Of a DNA stretch of 64,000 nucleotides, positions 4,737-29,480 are shown piece after piece; position 1 is the first letter of the stretch, and the number at the start of each line of letters is the position of its first letter. The position numbers were made by a program, and so were the translations under genes. The DNA comes from Aquimarina algiphila (lineage in GTDB: Bacteria; Bacteroidota; Bacteroidia; Flavobacteriales; Flavobacteriaceae): NCBI RefSeq assembly GCF_007489275.1, contig NZ_VLNR01000022.1, forward strand, positions 1 to 64,000, in the 5' to 3' direction. The notes under the pieces are model-generated. The model searched no databases, was not told the DNA's origin, and was given only the letters and a program-made list of their open reading frames with translations.

Positions 4737-5396
4737 ATGACAAAAAACATCTATTATGTTAGTGGATTAGGTGCAGATGAAAGAGTTTTTACTTTTTTAA
4801 AAATTGAAAATGCTAATGAAACTTTTATTAAATGGTTAGAACCAAATAAAAAAGAGTCACTTGACTCCTATTCAAAAAGGCTGATTGATCAAATTGATAG
4901 ATCAAAACCAATTATACTTATTGGAGTTTCTTTTGGAGGAATTGTTGTACAAGAAATAGCTAAACATATACAGGTAGAAAAACTTATAATAATTTCAAGT
5001 GTCAAAAGTTTTAAAGACTATGGGCTTAATCTAAAGCTAGCAAGTTTTACGAAAATATATAAGATTGTACCTTCATTTATCCTCAAATGGTCTAATAAAT
5101 TAACTGCCGATTATTATTTTGGTACAGAGTCAAAAGAAGAATCTAAACTATTAAATGCAATTATCAATGATACTGATGAAAGATTCATGGTCTGGGCTAT
5201 TGATAAGATTATGCAATGGAAAAACTTCTCCCAGGCAAAGTATAATATTATACATATTCAAGGTAGTAAAGATAGAATTTTTACAAATAGAAATATAGAT
5301 AATACAATTTGGATTAAAGGAGGTGGTCATTTTATGATCGTAAATAAAGCAAATGAAATATCTGATATTATTAATCAATCTCTAGCCAAGATGTAA
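4737..5396 (+). CDS. Alpha/beta hydrolase
   Basis: The 219 aa product has the N-terminal strand and oxyanion region YYVSGLGADERVF, the nucleophile elbow GVSFGG with Ser66, an acid candidate Asp179 in GSKDR and the catalytic His198 in GGGHFM. This is a compact alpha/beta hydrolase without a large lid. No signal peptide, so cytoplasmic. Close relatives are usually annotated only as hydrolases; the substrate is unknown. It stands alone with roughly 100 bases on its upstream side. Confidence 0.82.
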   Translation: MTKNIYYVSGLGADERVFTFLKIENANETFIKWLEPNKKESLDSYSKRLIDQIDRSKPIILIGVSFGGIVVQEIAKHIQVEKLIIISSVKSFKDYGLNLKLASFTKIYKIVPSFILKWSNKLTADYYFGTESKEESKLLNAIINDTDERFMVWAIDKIMQWKNFSQAKYNIIHIQGSKDRIFTNRNIDNTIWIKGGGHFMIVNKANEISDIINQSLAKM

Positions 5397-5432
5397 AAAC
5401 ATGGTAAATATTAAGAAGTAAATGACTGAAGA

Positions 5433-5552
5433 TTGAAAATAACTAAAGAACAATTTTATCTAAAAAAAGGAGATGAATCTAATAGAGATACCTCATTCTA
5501 TTTCACTTTGATGAATGTGAATGAACAAGAATTATCATATTTAGTAATTTAA
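5433..5552 (+). CDS. Possible 39 aa small protein or gene remnant
   Basis: A TTG-initiated frame at 5433 runs to TAA at 5552 and gives a protein-like product (starting MKITKEQFYLKKGDES, ending ELSYLVI). It fills most of the gap between the hydrolase and the DUF6624 gene. There is no clear ribosome binding site and no recognised family. It may be the start of a decayed gene whose remainder was lost. Weak support. Confidence 0.22.
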   Translation: MKITKEQFYLKKGDESNRDTSFYFTLMNVNEQELSYLVI

Positions 5553-5570
5553 GTCAATAGGAACAATAAA

Positions 5571-6170
5571 ATGGATTACAAAAACATTGCAAAAAGAATA
5601 ATTGAATTAAAAAATGCGGACCTTGAACTTAGGGACAAGCTGATACAAACTGGACAACTCGATGAAGGATATAACAAAGAAATGGAGAAATTGCACAACA
5701 AAAATGCTGAAGCTTTAGATGAAATAATAGATGCAATCGGTTACCCTACAATTGATAAAGTTGGTAAAGAAGCCAATGAAGCAACTTGGTTAATTATACA
5801 ACATTCGATCGGGCAACCTTCTTTTATGAAAAAGTGTGAGAAACTATTAGAAAAGGCTGTAAATGATAATAAAGCAAATCCAAAAAATCTAGCGTATCTA
5901 ACTGACCGAATAGCTGTATTTGAAGGTAATCCACAACGTTATGGAACTCAATTTGATTGGGATAAAAACAAAGAGTTAAGTCCATATAATTTTGACGATT
6001 TGACCAAAGTAAATCAAAGAAGAAAATCAATTGGACTTAATACACTTGAAGAACAAACAGAAATTATAAGAACACAAGCTAAAAATGAAAATCAATCACC
6101 ACCAATTGATTTTGAAAAAAGGAAACAAGAAATTAAAAAATGGCAAAAAAAGGTTGGATGGACAAAATAA
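5571..6170 (+). CDS. DUF6624 family protein
   Basis: The 199 aa product shows the DUF6624 signature in order: an N-terminal helix with LRDKL, then IDAIGYPTIDKVGKEANEA, TWLIIQHSIGQPSFM, LAYLTDRIAVFEGNPQRYGTQ and a C-terminal helix. The QH and YGTQ motifs are the most conserved in the family. Function is unknown; proteins of this type are often found in short-gene accessory regions, sometimes suspected of roles in toxin-immunity or stress. No signal peptide. Monocistronic. Confidence 0.8.
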   Translation: MDYKNIAKRIIELKNADLELRDKLIQTGQLDEGYNKEMEKLHNKNAEALDEIIDAIGYPTIDKVGKEANEATWLIIQHSIGQPSFMKKCEKLLEKAVNDNKANPKNLAYLTDRIAVFEGNPQRYGTQFDWDKNKELSPYNFDDLTKVNQRRKSIGLNTLEEQTEIIRTQAKNENQSPPIDFEKRKQEIKKWQKKVGWTK

Positions 6171-6331
6171 AAACCATCAATAACCAACCTGTTTGAATTG
6201 AAAAAAGAAATAAGAGAAAATTACTGTTATGGTTTTAGTAGTAAAAGATTAAAAAGAGTACAGAAAAATCACTAAATGAGTAACGTTTTGCTTTGTTATT
6301 ATACCTATTTATTATGAAATCTAAATTATAT

Positions 6332-7204
6332 ATGAAAAGATATTTTTTATTGGTCATACTCTCGTTGGGGTTCTTTCTTAATGTATCATGTCAAGAAACC
6401 ACATATAAACCCGTTAAGTATCCAAATAATTATAAAGCCCAAATTGACGTAGTCTATACCAAAATAGAGCATTGGGAAGGTCGTATGGATATATATACTA
6501 ATCCGATTTCAGAAAAACCAACTCCCATTGTTATTAATATTCATGGCGGAGGATGGAATCATGGTGTTAAAGAGTCACAAACTGGTTTTGGATATTTTTT
6601 TAAGAAAGGATTTGCTGTTGCCAATGTAGAATATCGTTTGGTAGACGTTTCTCCAGCCCCTGGAGCGATTGAAGACCTTCGATGTGCGCTAATATATTTG
6701 TATAAACATGCTAAAGCATTAAACATTGATACTAACAAGATCGTTGTAATGGGAGGTTCTACAGGAGGTCATTTGGCTCTTATGACCGGTTTATTGGGTA
6801 ATAATAGAAAATTTGATACGAACTGTGAATATGATACTAAAATTAAAATAGCTGCAATTATTGATAAATACGCACCATCAGATTTAACATTAATGATAAA
6901 GGGATCTGTTAAAAGATGGCTGGGTGATGCTTATAAAAACAAAGAATTTATAGAATCTGTTTCACCATTTTATTATGTAGATAAAAATAGTCCCCCAATA
7001 CTAATTATACATGGTACCAAAGATCCATATGTTCCATATCAACAGTCTGTGCTTCTTTATGAAAAATTAAAAGCAAATAACATTAAAACAGAATTAGTAA
7101 CTATTGAAGGAGGAGGTCATGGAAAATTTTCAAAAGAACAAAGATTAATGTTAAATGAAAAAATATGGAGATTCTTAAACGAATTAGAATTGACAAAGGG
7201 CTAA
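6332..7204 (+). CDS. Lipoprotein alpha/beta hydrolase (BD-FAE/hormone-sensitive-lipase-like esterase)
   Basis: I choose ATG 6332 because it begins a clean lipoprotein signal (MKRYFLLVIL...FLNVSC, Cys20); upstream starts at 6293 and 6314 only add residues before it. The 290 aa product carries the oxyanion motif HGGG (71-74), nucleophile elbow GGSTGG with Ser143, Asp231 in HGTKDPYVPY and His263 in GGGHGKF. This is an exported esterase or carboxylesterase of the alpha/beta hydrolase fold-3 or BD-FAE type, likely acting in the periplasm or at the outer membrane. Substrate unknown. It stands alone. Confidence 0.85.
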   Translation: MKRYFLLVILSLGFFLNVSCQETTYKPVKYPNNYKAQIDVVYTKIEHWEGRMDIYTNPISEKPTPIVINIHGGGWNHGVKESQTGFGYFFKKGFAVANVEYRLVDVSPAPGAIEDLRCALIYLYKHAKALNIDTNKIVVMGGSTGGHLALMTGLLGNNRKFDTNCEYDTKIKIAAIIDKYAPSDLTLMIKGSVKRWLGDAYKNKEFIESVSPFYYVDKNSPPILIIHGTKDPYVPYQQSVLLYEKLKANNIKTELVTIEGGGHGKFSKEQRLMLNEKIWRFLNELELTKG

Positions 7205-7315
7205 GTGTAAATTAAATTTTAGTTGATCTCATAAATACAATTAAAAGTTTACTGCTTTAATCCTGTGCTAATATCATCGTCGAAATGTTGTAGATAATTT
7301 TAAATCTAAATAAAA

Positions 7316-7801
7316 TTGAATATACGCAAAGCAACAGAGCTTGATTATAATCAAGTTTGGGATATCTTTTCAAAGGTTATTGCAACAGGAGACACATATG
7401 TTTTCGATCCAAAAACACCTAAATCTGATTTAAAAAAATATTGGTTTGCAGATTATATGCAAACTTTTATCATTGAAGAAAATAAAACTATTCTCGGAAC
7501 ATACGTTATCAAACCTAATCAAATAGGTTTGGGAAATCATATTGCAAATTGTAGTTATATGGTAAGTCCTAATGCTCAAGGAAAAGGAATTGGAAAAAAA
7601 CTTTGTGAACACTCTATAAAAACAGCTAAAGAAAGTGGATATAAAAGTATTCAATTTAATATTGTTGTTAGCACAAACAAAGGTGCTGTAGAATTATGGA
7701 AACGATATGGATTTAAAATAATTGGAACTACTCCAAATGGATTTAGGCACTCAAAATTAGGATTTGTTAATACTTATATTATGTATAAAGATCTTAGCTA
7801 A
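7316..7801 (+). CDS. GNAT family N-acetyltransferase
   Basis: The 161 aa product begins NIRKATELDYNQVWDIF, normal for a GNAT N-terminus, so the TTG at 7316 is accepted as start. The acetyl-CoA pyrophosphate loop is QGKGIG at 88-93 after YMVSPNA. The C-terminal strand has AVELWKRYGFKIIGT, the usual L-Y-x-x-x-GF motif. Amine substrate unknown. Monocistronic; the next gene faces it from the other strand. Confidence 0.87.
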   Translation: MNIRKATELDYNQVWDIFSKVIATGDTYVFDPKTPKSDLKKYWFADYMQTFIIEENKTILGTYVIKPNQIGLGNHIANCSYMVSPNAQGKGIGKKLCEHSIKTAKESGYKSIQFNIVVSTNKGAVELWKRYGFKIIGTTPNGFRHSKLGFVNTYIMYKDLS

Positions 7802-7841
7802 GAACGAAAAGAAGCACATAAATATCAATATTAAGTGAAAT

Positions 7842-8534
7842 TTAAAAAATTTTATAAAGTGTAGTTACTATACGTCCTTTATTGTCATCTAAAATAACAG
7901 ACAATAATTGTTTTTCTTCTATTACTTTAAGATTAAATGGTGGAGCCAATAAGTCTAAGCCACTTTGCTTCTTCAGTCTAATTCCTTGTCCAGAAATAAT
8001 TTCTTTATTAGGCACAAAATCTCCTTTAGGTAAATGTTCTGTTACAATAACATATTTATAATCGATTAATTTATTTACTATACTTTGTACTTCAGTATTG
8101 GATAAATGTTGTAGTACTTGTCTTAATAAAGCACAATCTCCAGAGGGTAAATCATCTTCTGCAAGATCCAAACAATAGAATTCTAAATTCGCATCTTTAA
8201 ATCTTTCTTTATTATATTCTATCAGGTCTTCTACTATATCTACCGCAATATATTTTTTGGTATGCTTTACCAATTCTTTTCCTACATTAAAATCTCCACA
8301 ACCTAAATCACATACCACAAGGTTTTTTTTGAAGGATGATAAGAATGATGTCAAAACATCAATATATGGATGTACCAATTCGGGGTGATGTGACCCCATA
8401 CCCGAGTAAAAATTAGTTTTGTTATCACCCCAAAGTTTCATTTCATATACCTGTTCCATAGCATCTTTGGTTGGCCAGGGTTTCTTTATTCTTTTAGTCT
8501 CATTTTCTTTCTTCTTCATAAACACTCTATACAA
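7842..8534 (-). CDS. Class I SAM-dependent methyltransferase
   Basis: The SAM-binding motif I is VVCDLGCGDFNVG at about residues 73-85 and a second acidic strand (YIAVDIVEDLIEY) follows at the expected distance. LLRQVLQHLSN resembles motif post-II of small-molecule methyltransferases. The product is 230 aa from the ATG at 8534, or 225 aa from the internal ATG at 8519 (MKKKENETK), which is equally plausible. It is the only minus-strand gene between 1 and 13,100, convergent with the acetyltransferase. Substrate unknown. Confidence 0.8.
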   Translation of the reverse strand: MYRVFMKKKENETKRIKKPWPTKDAMEQVYEMKLWGDNKTNFYSGMGSHHPELVHPYIDVLTSFLSSFKKNLVVCDLGCGDFNVGKELVKHTKKYIAVDIVEDLIEYNKERFKDANLEFYCLDLAEDDLPSGDCALLRQVLQHLSNTEVQSIVNKLIDYKYVIVTEHLPKGDFVPNKEIISGQGIRLKKQSGLDLLAPPFNLKVIEEKQLLSVILDDNKGRIVTTLYKIF

Positions 8535-27812: not shown

Positions 27813-27998
27813 ATGAAAAAAATCTTAAACCTAACAGGAGTTCAGAAGCTATCCAAGGAACAACAACAAGAAATAAAAGGTGCTTTTGGGCGCGCTACTT
27901 GTTGTCCTAATGGACGAGGATGTCTTATCAGTTTTGGTAACCAAAGTTTTTGCGAACCAGGATATTGTGATCGTTGGGGGCGATGTATTTTTGCCTAA
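27813..27998 (+). CDS. Cysteine-rich secreted-type peptide precursor 1
   Basis: A 61 aa precursor. Residues 1-24 are the shared leader, MKKILNLTGVQKLSKEQQ then QEIKGA, resembling double-glycine-type bacteriocin leaders of Bacteroidota (LxxLSKxEQ...G[GAS]). The core of about 37 residues has six cysteines in the order CC-x5-C-x9-C-x3-C-x5-C and ends RCIFA. Six cysteines suit three disulfides or thioether crosslinks. A terminator follows. Bacteriocin, toxin or signalling peptide are all possible; no partner gene is adjacent. Confidence 0.75.
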   Translation: MKKILNLTGVQKLSKEQQQEIKGAFGRATCCPNGRGCLISFGNQSFCEPGYCDRWGRCIFA

Positions 27999-28015
27999 TC
28001 TCGATACTAATCATA

Positions 28016-28120
28016 CAAAAAAGACAAACTTTAGGTTTGTCTTTTTTATTAGTAAATAATTCTAATTGGAATACCATTATAAGTCAAAAATTGAATTATT
28101 AACTTTTAAATATACACATT
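28016..28120 (+). repeat. Duplicated terminator-spacer module, copy A
   Basis: This stretch, from the terminator to the start of peptide gene 2, matches 28951-29056 before peptide gene 5, with about six substitutions and one indel by eye. Together with the flanking genes it indicates duplication of a gene-terminator-spacer unit. Confidence 0.85.
28018..28047 (+). terminator. Intrinsic terminator after peptide gene 1
   Basis: AGACAAAC and GTTTGTCT form a stem (28022-28029 with 28035-28042) around TTTAG, followed by six T. An identical hairpin follows peptide gene 4. Confidence 0.85.
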
Positions 28121-28297
28121 ATGAAAAAAATCTTAAATCTAACAGGAGTTCAGAAACTATCTAAAGAACAACAACAAAATATTAATGGATCAGCTTCGAG
28201 AGGAGTTTGTTGTCCAAGTGGCAGAGGTTGTCTCATTGCCGGACGTTTTTGTGAACCAGGTCGTTGTAATCCTTGGGGAGGATGTGTCTTTTACTAA
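28121..28297 (+). CDS. Cysteine-rich secreted-type peptide precursor 2
   Basis: A 58 aa precursor. The leader is identical to peptide 1 for 19 residues and ends QNINGSA, where GS replaces GA. The core has six cysteines, CC-x5-C-x6-C-x3-C-x5-C, and contains FCEPGRC and the ending GCVFY, close to peptides 1 and 4. It is preceded by the conserved ATTAACTTTTAAATATACACA element. No obvious terminator separates it from peptide 3, which has its own candidate promoter. Confidence 0.75.
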   Translation: MKKILNLTGVQKLSKEQQQNINGSASRGVCCPSGRGCLIAGRFCEPGRCNPWGGCVFY

Positions 28298-28388
28298 AAA
28301 CATAAACAAAACACACATAATCAACACCTTAACCTGTTTAACCCTTTTAATTTAATACCCCAAATTTATAAATATCATGAACATAAAC

Positions 28389-28419
28389 TTGTATTCCCAA
28401 TAAACGTCTTATAACTTTA
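28389..28419 (+). promoter_or_regulatory. Candidate promoter of peptide gene 3
   Basis: TTG at 28389-28391 and TAACTTTA at 28412-28419 lie 20 bases apart, close to the Bacteroidota consensus of -33 TTG and -7 TAnnTTTG. The start codon is 52 bases downstream. Confidence 0.45.
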
Positions 28420-28471
28420 GAATACATATTTATACCTGAATTTTAATTACTAACTTTTAAATATTTACACA

Positions 28472-28657
28472 ATGAAAACAATATTGAAGCTAACAGGAGT
28501 GCAAAAACTAAGTAAAAAAGAACAACAGGATGTAAATGGAGCCAATTTTTCCAGACCTTATTGCAATGGCCCTAATAGATGCTGTGTAAGAACTCCAAGT
28601 GGAATAGAATTTTGTGACTATGGATACTGTGTTAGTGGCAGATGTATCTGGGCATAA
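28472..28657 (+). CDS. Cysteine-rich secreted-type peptide precursor 3
   Basis: A 61 aa precursor and the most divergent copy. The leader is MKTILKLTGVQKLSKKEQQ then DVNGA. The core has six cysteines but in a shifted order, C-x6-CC-x9-C-x3-C-x4-C, so the vicinal pair lies second rather than first. It ends RCIWA. The same conserved element stands before the start. Its divergence suggests an older duplication than the pairs 1/2 and 4/5. Confidence 0.75.
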   Translation: MKTILKLTGVQKLSKKEQQDVNGANFSRPYCNGPNRCCVRTPSGIEFCDYGYCVSGRCIWA

Positions 28658-28673
28658 TAAAATATAAATAATG

Positions 28674-28712
28674 AAAAGAGGATGACTTTATTGCATAAGG
28701 TGATCCTTTTTT
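28674..28712 (+). terminator. Intrinsic terminator after peptide gene 3
   Basis: GGATGACTTTAT and ATAAGGTGATCC pair at 10 of 12 positions around a three-base loop, followed by six T. Confidence 0.75.
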
Positions 28713-28760
28713 GGTTAGAAAGCATATCTCAATTCGTATTAACTTTAAATTAAATATATA

Positions 28761-28937
28761 ATGAAGAAAATCTTAAATCTAACAGGGGTTCAGAAATTAT
28801 CCAAAGAACAACAAGGTCAAATTAAAGGTGCAGCTTTCGCTGGTTGTTGTAGTCCAAACAGGTGCCGAGTAAGCTTTCCAGGAGGAAGTTTTTGTGAGCC
28901 TGGACGTTGCACAAGTTTTGGTTGTATCTTTTACTAA
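28761..28937 (+). CDS. Cysteine-rich secreted-type peptide precursor 4
   Basis: A 58 aa precursor with leader MKKILNLTGVQKLSKEQQ then GQIKGAA. The core has six cysteines, CC-x4-C-x9-C-x3-C-x4-C, with FCEPGRC and a CIFY end shared with peptides 1 and 2. Its upstream element is the loosest of the set. It is followed by a terminator identical to that after peptide 1. Confidence 0.75.
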   Translation: MKKILNLTGVQKLSKEQQGQIKGAAFAGCCSPNRCRVSFPGGSFCEPGRCTSFGCIFY

Positions 28938-28950
28938 GAACGCAATTAGT

Positions 28951-29056
28951 ATAAAAAGACAAACTTTAGGTTTGTCTTTTTTATTAGTGAATAATTCTAA
29001 TTGGAATACTATTCTAAATCAAAAATTGGATTATTAACTTTTAAATATATACAAAA
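28951..29056 (+). repeat. Duplicated terminator-spacer module, copy B
   Basis: Near-identical to 28016-28120; it includes the same hairpin (AGACAAAC at 28957-28964, GTTTGTCT at 28970-28977) and the leader element in front of peptide gene 5. Confidence 0.85.
28953..28982 (+). terminator. Intrinsic terminator after peptide gene 4
   Basis: An 8-base stem, AGACAAAC with GTTTGTCT, loop TTTAG, then six T; same sequence as the hairpin at 28018. Confidence 0.85.
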
Positions 29057-29242
29057 ATGAAAAAAATTTTAAATCTTACAGGAGTTCAGAAATTATCTAA
29101 AGAACAACAACAAGAAATAAAAGGTGCTATAAGAAATTACGGTTGTTGCAATAGTCAACAATGTCGTGTAAAACTAGCGGGTGGTGCTTTTGGTTGTGAA
29201 TATTCACTTTGTATTGATGGTTTTTGTCAATACTTGTATTAA
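29057..29242 (+). CDS. Cysteine-rich secreted-type peptide precursor 5
   Basis: A 61 aa precursor with a leader identical to peptide 1 through KEQQQEIKGA. The core has six cysteines, CC-x4-C-x10-C-x3-C-x4-C, and differs in sequence from the others (AFGCEYSLCIDGFCQYLY). The combination of identical leader and changed core suggests rapid diversification of the mature peptide. It lies just before a decayed sixth copy. Confidence 0.75.
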   Translation: MKKILNLTGVQKLSKEQQQEIKGAIRNYGCCNSQQCRVKLAGGAFGCEYSLCIDGFCQYLY

Positions 29243-29269
29243 ACACTAATCGTAAAAATTATTCTTGTT

Positions 29270-29432
29270 AAAAAAATCTTAGAATTAAGTAGAGTTCAGA
29301 AATTATTCAAATGAACATTAAGGAAGAATTAAAGGAACCAGAAGAAATCCAGGATACTTTAATATTCAATGTGATCTAAGAGGTATAGGTAATTCTCTTT
29401 GTCTAAATAGTATATGTACAAATCTCTATTAC
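29270..29432 (+). pseudogene. Decayed sixth peptide precursor
   Basis: The leader is recognisable (KKILELSRVQKLFK) but the start codon is replaced by GTT at 29267, a TGA stands at 29312 and a frameshift follows. The core remains in another frame: RNPGYFNIQC, then SLCLNSICTNLYY, matching the end of peptide 5 (SLCIDGFCQYLY). Only three of six cysteines are left. This is a remnant and not a functional gene. Confidence 0.75.
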
Positions 29433-29440
29433 AAAATTCT

Positions 29441-29480
29441 AAAACAACCTCTTATTTCAAAAAACAAGAGGTTGTTTTTA
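29441..29480. terminator. Bidirectional intrinsic terminator
   Basis: AAAACAACCTCTT (29441-29453) and AAGAGGTTGTTTT (29466-29478) form a 13-base stem with a 12-base loop between the peptide cluster and the convergent ackA gene. Confidence 0.85.

What the first reader, a model, noticed from the sequence alone, without database searches (positions are those of the whole stretch)
27813..29432. Array of six-cysteine peptides behind a near-invariant leader
Five intact genes within 1.45 kb share the leader MKKILNLTGVQKLSKEQQ then xIxG[AS], while their cores differ and keep six cysteines in patterns such as CC-x4/5-C-x6-10-C-x3-C-x4/5-C. A conserved leader with variable cores is the hallmark of exported ribosomal peptides, as in bacteriocins with double-glycine leaders. 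The core family is not one I recognise as described.
Basis: partly seen in the sequence, partly recalled or inferred. Interest (0 to 1): 0.85.

Follow-up and report, generated by a model that had tools for sequence, protein, structure and literature searches.

The report
Array of exported disulfide-rich bacterial peptides
A marine bacterium carries five tandem genes for small six-cysteine peptides behind a shared export tag, part of a set of about thirty such peptides in its genome that appears to be served by one dedicated disulfide-forming machine; the family and its link to that machine seem undescribed, and what the peptides do is unknown.

Summary
Confirmed: five intact genes (58-61 aa, six Cys each) plus one decayed copy. 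The genome is an Aquimarina. The locus is old: in 17 of 19 named homologous loci it lies beside the same endonuclease gene, with up to six copies. Core types are conserved between species under purifying selection, so the cores are a few conserved types, not hypervariable. The five proteins match no Pfam or NCBIfam model over its cut-off.

The wider finding: the leader marks about 30 peptides in this genome (up to 55 in relatives), mostly scattered; cysteine number is even in 22 of the 23 examined. Three of them here, and one or more in most relatives examined, lie next to a 529-aa fusion of a C39-like domain without the catalytic cysteine, a VKOR and a DsbA-like thioredoxin. Across 199 Flavobacteriaceae genomes leader and fusion co-occur (21 of 23 leader genomes), also after correction for descent. 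A conserved C39 ABC exporter with an intact active site is encoded elsewhere.

Best reading: secreted peptides with three disulfides, cut after GA/GS, exported by a C39 transporter and oxidised in trans by the VKOR fusion. Antimicrobial use is plausible but unshown; there is no room for immunity genes within the array.

The parts
27813..27998 (+). peptide gene 1, type A core (CC-x5-C-x9-C-x4-C-x5-C)
28121..28297 (+). peptide gene 2, type A-like core with short loop (CC-x5-C-x6-C-x4-C-x5-C)
28472..28657 (+). peptide gene 3, type B core (C-x5-CC-x9-C-x4-C-x4-C)
28761..28937 (+). peptide gene 4, type C core (CC-x4-C-x9-C-x4-C-x4-C)
29057..29242 (+). peptide gene 5, divergent type C core (CC-x4-C-x10-C-x4-C-x4-C)
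27813..27884 (+). 24-aa leader of gene 1 ending GA; the other leaders are at 28121-28192 (GS), 28472-28543, 28761-28832 and 29057-29128 (all GA)
29265..29432 (+). decayed sixth copy (stop codons in all frames)
28017..28047 (+). terminator-like hairpin after gene 1 (14-pair stem, -13.8 kcal/mol, z -5.8), then a U run
   Evidence: the consensus scan did not list it
28953..28981 (+). terminator-like hairpin after gene 4 (fold of -13.2 kcal/mol, z -4.4), then a U run
   Evidence: not listed
29441..29478 (.). terminator-like hairpin between the decayed copy and the acetate kinase gene (17 pairs, listed on the - strand); also folds on + (-15.5 kcal/mol, z -6.6)

Best explanation
The five genes encode precursors of small secreted peptides. 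The 24-residue leader is read by a peptidase-containing C39 ABC exporter (best candidate: the conserved exporter at G000:C202:32809-35007, with an HlyD partner), which cuts after GA or GS and releases a 34-37-residue core. A membrane fusion protein encoded elsewhere (G000:C13:51316-52902: C39-like domain without catalytic Cys, VKOR, DsbA-like thioredoxin) binds the same leader through its C39-like domain and pairs the six cysteines into three disulfides at or beyond the inner membrane. One machine serves about 30 leader peptides, most of them scattered, which is why the array carries no enzymes of its own. Shown: leader family, conserved cysteines, domains and redox cysteines of the fusion, linkage and co-occurrence of fusion and leader peptides. 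Inferred: cleavage, export, oxidation, leader binding, choice of exporter. The biological role is most likely antagonism of other organisms (about 0.4 on its own), unproven.
For: Leader profile A4: 31 matches in this genome, matches in 44 of 52 Aquimarina genomes. Cysteine parity with a pattern blind to cysteine: even in 22 of 23 own-genome cores, 14 of 16 and 21 of 24 at fusion loci, 18 of 18 in named arrays, counting distinct cores with two or more Cys (the first two sets share the C13 locus). The fusion has VKOR and Thioredoxin_4 over cut-off and C39 just under it (20.8 against 22 bits; 23.3); in ten relatives VKOR is over cut-off in 10, Thioredoxin_4 in 7, C39 in 6. Six redox cysteines are invariant in the 55 proteins that could be taken from 58 loci (the script asked for a CxxC somewhere). 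Leader peptides with two or more Cys lie within 1.5 kb of the fusion in 21 of 30 Aquimarina and 17 of 28 other Flavobacteriaceae loci; controls 0 of 13 window pieces, 1 of 30 and 0 of 28 reversed loci. In 199 Flavobacteriaceae genomes 21 of 23 leader-positive ones have the fusion; independent-pair sign test median p 0.0039 on 88 of them. Nine of 34 fusion paralogues lie within 80 bp of a C39 exporter, eight of these exporters being 87-93% identical to the C202 one. The C202 exporter keeps the DCG and His motifs. One leader peptide of another genus is over the cut-off of TIGR01847 bacteriocin_sig.
Against: The fusion orthologue itself is never within 6 kb of a listed exporter (0 of 39), and none of 30 C202-type exporter loci has a leader peptide within 1.5 kb, so the choice of exporter is indirect. 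Five distant fusion paralogues lie about 4 kb from C261-type exporters, the type that here sits with a LanB, so the fusion family may also serve other peptides. Within Aquimarina the genomes lacking both fusion and leader form one clade of small genomes, so that split is one event, and leader number rises with genome size (rho 0.77). Two leader genomes lack the fusion and eight fusion genomes lack the leader at the thresholds used. Leader position -7 is Gln, not the hydrophobic residue of classical double-glycine leaders (recalled). The array has no fusion nearby. No expression or mass data.
Confidence: 0.62

Rival explanations
1. Same maturation, but the peptides are signals or developmental/biofilm factors sensed by the cell or its kin, as the GG proteins EbfG1-4 support biofilms in Synechococcus.
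For: No room for immunity genes in the array; cores conserved between species; AraC-type regulators, most with TPR repeats, lie near some leader-peptide or exporter loci (L036, L032, L055, L033). EbfG precedent: abstract of PMC4997328.
Against: Over 20 different cores in one genome is many for a signal; no receptor identified; such regulators may be common in flavobacteria (not counted here).
Confidence: 0.22
2. RiPPs modified in trans by another enzyme (lanthionine-forming LanB/C, MNIO or radical SAM) and not simple disulfide peptides.
For: The genome has a split LanB (Lant_dehydr_N and Lant_dehydr_C) cluster at C261 and an ATP-grasp/SPASM-like/C39 group at C13:14757-19204. Five distant fusion paralogues in relatives lie about 4 kb from C261-type exporters.
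Against: No MNIO family member in the genome (control rings in 2 of 14). The C261 cluster has its own precursor with an unlike leader. C261-type exporters were listed in 8 of 52 Aquimarina genomes, but just above the E 1e-100 limit of that search, so 8 is a lower bound, against 44 with the leader. Even Cys numbers and the redox fusion point to disulfides. LanC and radical SAM enzymes were not searched for as families.
Confidence: 0.12
3. Cytoplasmic metal- or redox-binding small proteins; the leader is a folded N-terminal part and not an export signal.
For: Cysteine-rich; no exporter gene beside the array.
Against: The leader alone is shared with about 25 further matches elsewhere in the genome, mostly with unlike cores, and ends in G[GASNK] in nearly all; linkage to a membrane oxidase.
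Confidence: 0.04

Closest known systems
Pediocin-like and related class II bacteriocins with a thiol-disulfide accessory protein (PedC; BlpG for thermophilin 13; BdbA for sublancin 168)
   Same: Small peptide, ABC exporter, and a thioredoxin-fold helper linked to disulfide formation (PMC4919988: abstract, and section 8; the double-glycine leader and C39 exporter of pediocin are recalled)
   Different: Here the helper is a VKOR + thioredoxin + C39-like fusion apparently serving about 30 mostly scattered precursors; no room for immunity genes in the array; another phylum
NCBIfam NF047798 leader_Chryseo 'bacteriocin-like protein'
   Same: Leader ending in a GG-like site; the only NCBIfam match to each of the five leaders
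   Different: 12.0-14.1 bits against a cut-off of 23.5
Pfam PF14406 Bacteroid_pep
   Same: Ribosomal peptides of Bacteroidetes; touches two of the five leaders
   Different: 13.2-14 bits against a cut-off of 25
EbfG1-4/PteB of Synechococcus elongatus
   Same: Several small GG-motif secreted proteins dependent on the peptidase of one transporter (abstract of PMC4997328)
   Different: Biofilm role shown there; no VKOR fusion mentioned in the abstract
HlyB-type exporters with a C39-like domain without the catalytic Cys (recalled)
   Same: A degenerate C39 domain used for substrate binding
   Different: Here it is fused to VKOR and thioredoxin, not to an ABC transporter

Membership tests
Double-glycine-leader peptides exported by C39 ABC transporters | Leader ending GG/GA/GS with hydrophobic residues at set positions | tested here: inconclusive
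   GA or GS end, Ile/Val at -4, Leu at -12, Val at -15, but Gln at -7 (the classical positions are recalled). The five do not reach TIGR01847 bacteriocin_sig; one of six leader peptides from other places scanned does
Double-glycine-leader peptides exported by C39 ABC transporters | C39 exporter with intact catalytic Cys and His encoded in the genome | tested here: met
   Four full-length C39 ABC transporters; C202 has DCG and HYVV motifs
Double-glycine-leader peptides exported by C39 ABC transporters | Cleavage and export shown | not testable with these tools
   needs mass spectrometry and an exporter knock-out
Class II bacteriocins | Immunity gene beside the precursor | tested here: not met
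   Gaps of 103-174 nt between peptide genes; flanking genes are a secreted endonuclease I and acetate kinase/phosphotransacetylase. An unlinked immunity gene is not excluded
Class II bacteriocins | Antibacterial activity | not testable with these tools
   needs synthesis or a culture assay
NF047798 leader_Chryseo | Score over curated cut-off | tested here: not met
   12.0-14.1 bits against 23.5
PF14406 Bacteroid_pep | Score over gathering cut-off | tested here: not met
   13.2-14 bits against 25. The genome search rang nowhere, controls included, so it adds nothing
Lanthipeptides (class I) | Dehydratase encoded with the precursor | tested here: not met
   None beside the array; a LanB cluster with its own precursor lies on another contig
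MNIO-modified Cys-rich RiPPs | MNIO (PF05114) enzyme in the genome | tested here: not met
   0 matches in own genome; control rings in 2 of 14
Known disulfide-rich folds (defensin, knottin, antifungal PAF) | Fold match to a solved structure | tested here: inconclusive
   Models of pLDDT 80.7 and 87.6; no Foldseek match at E 0.001 or better; VIA-align best Z 2.2

The most novel reading that the evidence does not exclude
Flavobacteria have a dedicated trans-acting oxidative folding and export pathway for double-glycine-type peptides: a C39-like pseudo-peptidase domain captures a common leader and a fused VKOR-DsbA module installs the disulfides, which lets one machine serve dozens of mostly scattered, independently evolving disulfide-rich peptides (up to 55 leader matches per genome), including the Aquimarina six-cysteine array.
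Probability: 0.5. Interest if true: 0.8.

Novelty: new variant of a known kind. Interest (0 to 1): 0.66.

Why it matters
If true, it gives a leader tag and an oxidase that together locate hundreds of undescribed disulfide-rich peptides in marine flavobacteria, which cluster-based mining can miss because precursors and machinery often lie apart. It would also be an example of a C39-like domain serving an oxidase instead of an ABC exporter, and a Gram-negative counterpart of the PedC/BdbA helpers of Gram-positive bacteriocins.

Tried and rejected
Chance or artefact: rejected. Hypervariable cores under diversifying selection: rejected for same-type cores. A Bacteroidetes-type promoter box (TAnnTTTG, recalled) upstream of array genes: 6 of 55 distinct upstream stretches, shuffle mean 3.8, not supported. 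Known fold of the cores: no convincing match by sequence or structure. Anti-phage defence models: no match for the five. MNIO enzyme: none. Genus-level co-occurrence as independent evidence: withdrawn after the rpoB tree put the seven negatives that could be placed in one clade. The fusion against PDB sequences gave only weak hits, the best a DsbA-like chain at E 0.013 over the thioredoxin part.

Threshold notes: of the 44 leader-positive Aquimarina genomes two are weak (G003 E 0.02, G062 E 0.0016). The loose patterns (22 of 30, 23 of 28 loci) include some clearly false ORFs, so the strict counts (21 of 30, 17 of 28) are used. The genus profile search mixes array members with dispersed relatives, so its 27 of 33 is not a count of arrays. 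One search took 55 proteins from 58 loci; three (L151, L153, L172) gave none by its rule. The tree used 88 of 199 genomes: five positives (G133, G157, G212, G222, G269) were left out because no rpoB place was found or listed, and four negatives because completeness was under 90%; the rest are 27 loci given automatically and counted negative (less those four), three given automatically and positive, and places I picked from the listed rows, 39 of them negatives. The rpoB tree lacks G013 and G021.

Paper searches with VKOR or vitamin K epoxide reductase and C39, bacteriocin, double-glycine, Bacteroidetes or RiPP terms: three found nothing, one found a drug-microbiome review, and none of the eight papers holds 'vitamin K epoxide reductase'. 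Searches on Aquimarina bacteriocins, Bacteroidetes Cys-rich leaders and flavobacterial double-glycine peptides listed none whose title or abstract start describes this family; one search showed 12 of 38 and 15 of 18. Subscription papers are mostly not held, so this is not proof of novelty. Of PMC10734526 and PMC7440613 I saw passages only.
Full report
THE OBSERVATION. Five intact ORFs on the + strand (27813, 28121, 28472, 28761, 29057; 58-61 aa) share the leader MK(K/T)IL(N/K)LTGVQKLSK and carry six cysteines each. Gaps between them are 122, 174, 103 and 119 nt. A sixth copy at 29265-29432 is decayed, with stops in all three frames. Terminator-like hairpins follow genes 1 and 4 and the decayed copy, so the array is probably several small transcription units; the consensus scan listed only the last of these hairpins.

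WHERE IT IS. The window's flanking genes are a secreted endonuclease I (Endonuclease_1, fn3, Por_Secre_tail) on the left and acetate kinase and phosphotransacetylase on the right. Of 19 named homologous loci, 17 are titled Aquimarina or uncultured Aquimarina, one is a Bacteroidia MAG and one Flavobacterium sp. 9AF, which with the kinship tables places the genome in Aquimarina. In 17 of the 19 (L037-L053) the left neighbour is the same endonuclease gene as in the window; in 11 the right neighbours are also the same acetate kinase pair; in two (L054, L055) neither. By the ORF pattern these 17 loci hold up to six copies (L050, matched by tblastn only, shows none by the pattern). The array profile matches 27 of 33 same-genus genomes and 0 of 23 genomes of other genera in the order (some matches are dispersed relatives). 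The locus is therefore old and vertically held.

CORES. At the loci matched by the array profile I took 166 leader peptides with 111 distinct cores: 109 have six cysteines and two have four (some genomes appear under two handles, which does not affect distinct cores). Two layouts dominate: CC-x4..11-C-x5..10-C-x4-C-x4..8-C (types A and C) and C-x5..7-CC-x4..9-C-x4-C-x4..8-C (type B), that is, one cysteine moves from beside C1 to beside C3. A four-cysteine member at G000:C1:114392 (L227) resembles type B and has lost the third and fourth cysteines together, which suggests (inference) that they pair. In L037 identical cores sit behind different leaders and one leader form carries two different cores, so leaders and cores have been shuffled between copies. 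Same-type cores are conserved: type A median dN/dS 0.0 (79 pairs), type B 0.18 (39 pairs); their leaders 0.12 (117) and 0.11 (33) (pairs not independent). AlphaFold gives small beta-rich models (pLDDT 80.7, pTM 0.47; pLDDT 87.6, pTM 0.55) with no convincing match to solved folds.

THE LEADER IS GENOME-WIDE. A single-leader query found 25 places in the genome at E 10 or better, and a 22-row leader profile finds 31 at E 0.05 or better. Apart from the array these are mostly single genes with unrelated neighbours and unlike cores. With a pattern that ignores cysteine, 22 of 23 distinct own-genome cores with two or more Cys have an even number; the odd one has a further Cys in its leader. Across 52 Aquimarina genomes the leader occurs in 44, with up to 55 matches; the number rises with genome size (rho 0.77 in 46 genomes).

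THE FUSION PROTEIN. Three leader peptides on contig C13 lie just downstream of a 529-aa protein with VKOR and Thioredoxin_4 over cut-off and a C39 match just under it. In ten relatives VKOR is over cut-off in 10, Thioredoxin_4 in 7 and C39 in 6. Four VKOR cysteines and the thioredoxin CxxC are invariant in the 55 homologues taken from 58 loci. The first 130 residues have no cysteine in 44 of 55; in three distant homologues (L167, L170, L171) a Cys near the N-terminus might be the ancestral catalytic one (inference). Leader peptides with two or more Cys lie within 1.5 kb of the fusion in 21 of 30 Aquimarina loci and 17 of 28 other Flavobacteriaceae loci by the strict pattern; controls give 0 of 13 window pieces, 1 of 30 and 0 of 28 reversed loci.

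CO-OCCURRENCE. In 52 Aquimarina genomes the eight without leader matches are exactly the eight without the fusion; two of the 44 positives are weak in the leader. An rpoB tree of 50 of these genomes shows that the seven of the eight that could be placed form one clade, so this counts as one event. Across 199 Flavobacteriaceae genomes, nearly one per genus, 21 have both, 2 the leader only, 8 the fusion only and 168 neither (Fisher 8e-20, uncorrected). On an rpoB tree of 88 of these, of 12 pairs on independent starred branches that differ in the leader, the fusion goes the same way in 9.4 on average and the other way in 0.2 (median p 0.0039, range 0.002-0.039; the reverse test on 15 pairs: 9.9, 0.0, median p 0.002). 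The link therefore holds after correction for descent, on a tree with many weak branches.

THE EXPORTER. Four full C39 ABC transporters are encoded. The C261 one sits with a split LanB and HlyD; the C13:17018 one with a RimK-like ATP-grasp protein and a sub-threshold SPASM match; the C3 one with HlyD. The C202 one, with an HlyD partner, has orthologues of 83-96% identity in 40 of the other 51 Aquimarina genomes. Some exporter hit at E 1e-100 occurs in 43 of 44 leader genomes and 3 of 8 without. Orthologues of the C202 exporter lie within 80 bp of a fusion paralogue in eight genomes. That makes it the best candidate, but none of 30 such loci has a leader peptide within 1.5 kb, and the fusion orthologue itself is never within 6 kb of a listed exporter (0 of 39). 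Of the 34 paralogues 17 are, five of them about 4 kb from C261-type exporters, so fusions may also serve other peptide classes.

MECHANISM. Inferred: the leader is cut after GA/GS during export, and disulfides are made by the fusion, with the C39-like domain as leader docking site. The closest working analogue is PedC/BlpG/BdbA, thioredoxin-fold helpers of Gram-positive bacteriocins (PMC4919988, abstract and section 8). Role: antagonism is my first guess, a signal or biofilm role the main rival (EbfG precedent, abstract of PMC4997328). The lack of room for immunity genes in the array and the conservation of cores between species speak against a classic narrow-spectrum bacteriocin.

NOVELTY. 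No Pfam or NCBIfam model over cut-off covers the five proteins; one leader peptide of another genus (L154) does pass TIGR01847 bacteriocin_sig, which fits the double-glycine class. The listed paper searches found no description of the fusion or its link to leader peptides. Surveys of flavobacterial biosynthetic clusters mention Aquimarina RiPP-like clusters (passages of PMC10734526) or bacteriocin clusters in the family (passages of PMC7440613) but, in what I read, not this family. I class it as a new variant of a known kind: double-glycine-type exported peptides with an unfamiliar trans-acting oxidase.

Noticed in passing
G000:C261:64500-84400 (L033): Class I lanthipeptide-type cluster: split LanB (Lant_dehydr_N and Lant_dehydr_C), HlyD, C39 exporter, a precursor with an unlike GG leader and an AraC-type regulator with TPR-like repeats.
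   Followed up: partly
G000:C13:14757-19204 (L035:6758-11205): RimK-like ATP-grasp protein, a protein with a sub-threshold SPASM match and a C39 exporter in a row: looks like a grasp-with-spasm RiPP system (label recalled).
   Followed up: partly
L036:11025-12725, L032:8850-10586, L055:1893-3599 and 5314-8157: AraC-type HTH proteins, most with TPR repeats, next to leader-peptide or C39-exporter loci, three around one peptide in Flavobacterium sp. 9AF; possible sensors of secreted peptides.
   Followed up: no
L227 (G000:C1:114200-114800): Type B homologue that has lost its third and fourth cysteines together, a natural hint at a disulfide pair.
   Followed up: partly
L037:5001-6937: Identical cores behind different leaders and different cores behind one leader form: shuffling or gene conversion within arrays.
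   Followed up: no
L167, L170, L171: Distant VKOR fusions have an N-terminal DNC motif that may be an ancestral catalytic C39 cysteine.
   Followed up: no
L032:3317-3445: Small cysteine-free GG-leader peptide beside the C3 C39 exporter, on a contig with a phage-type integrase.
   Followed up: no
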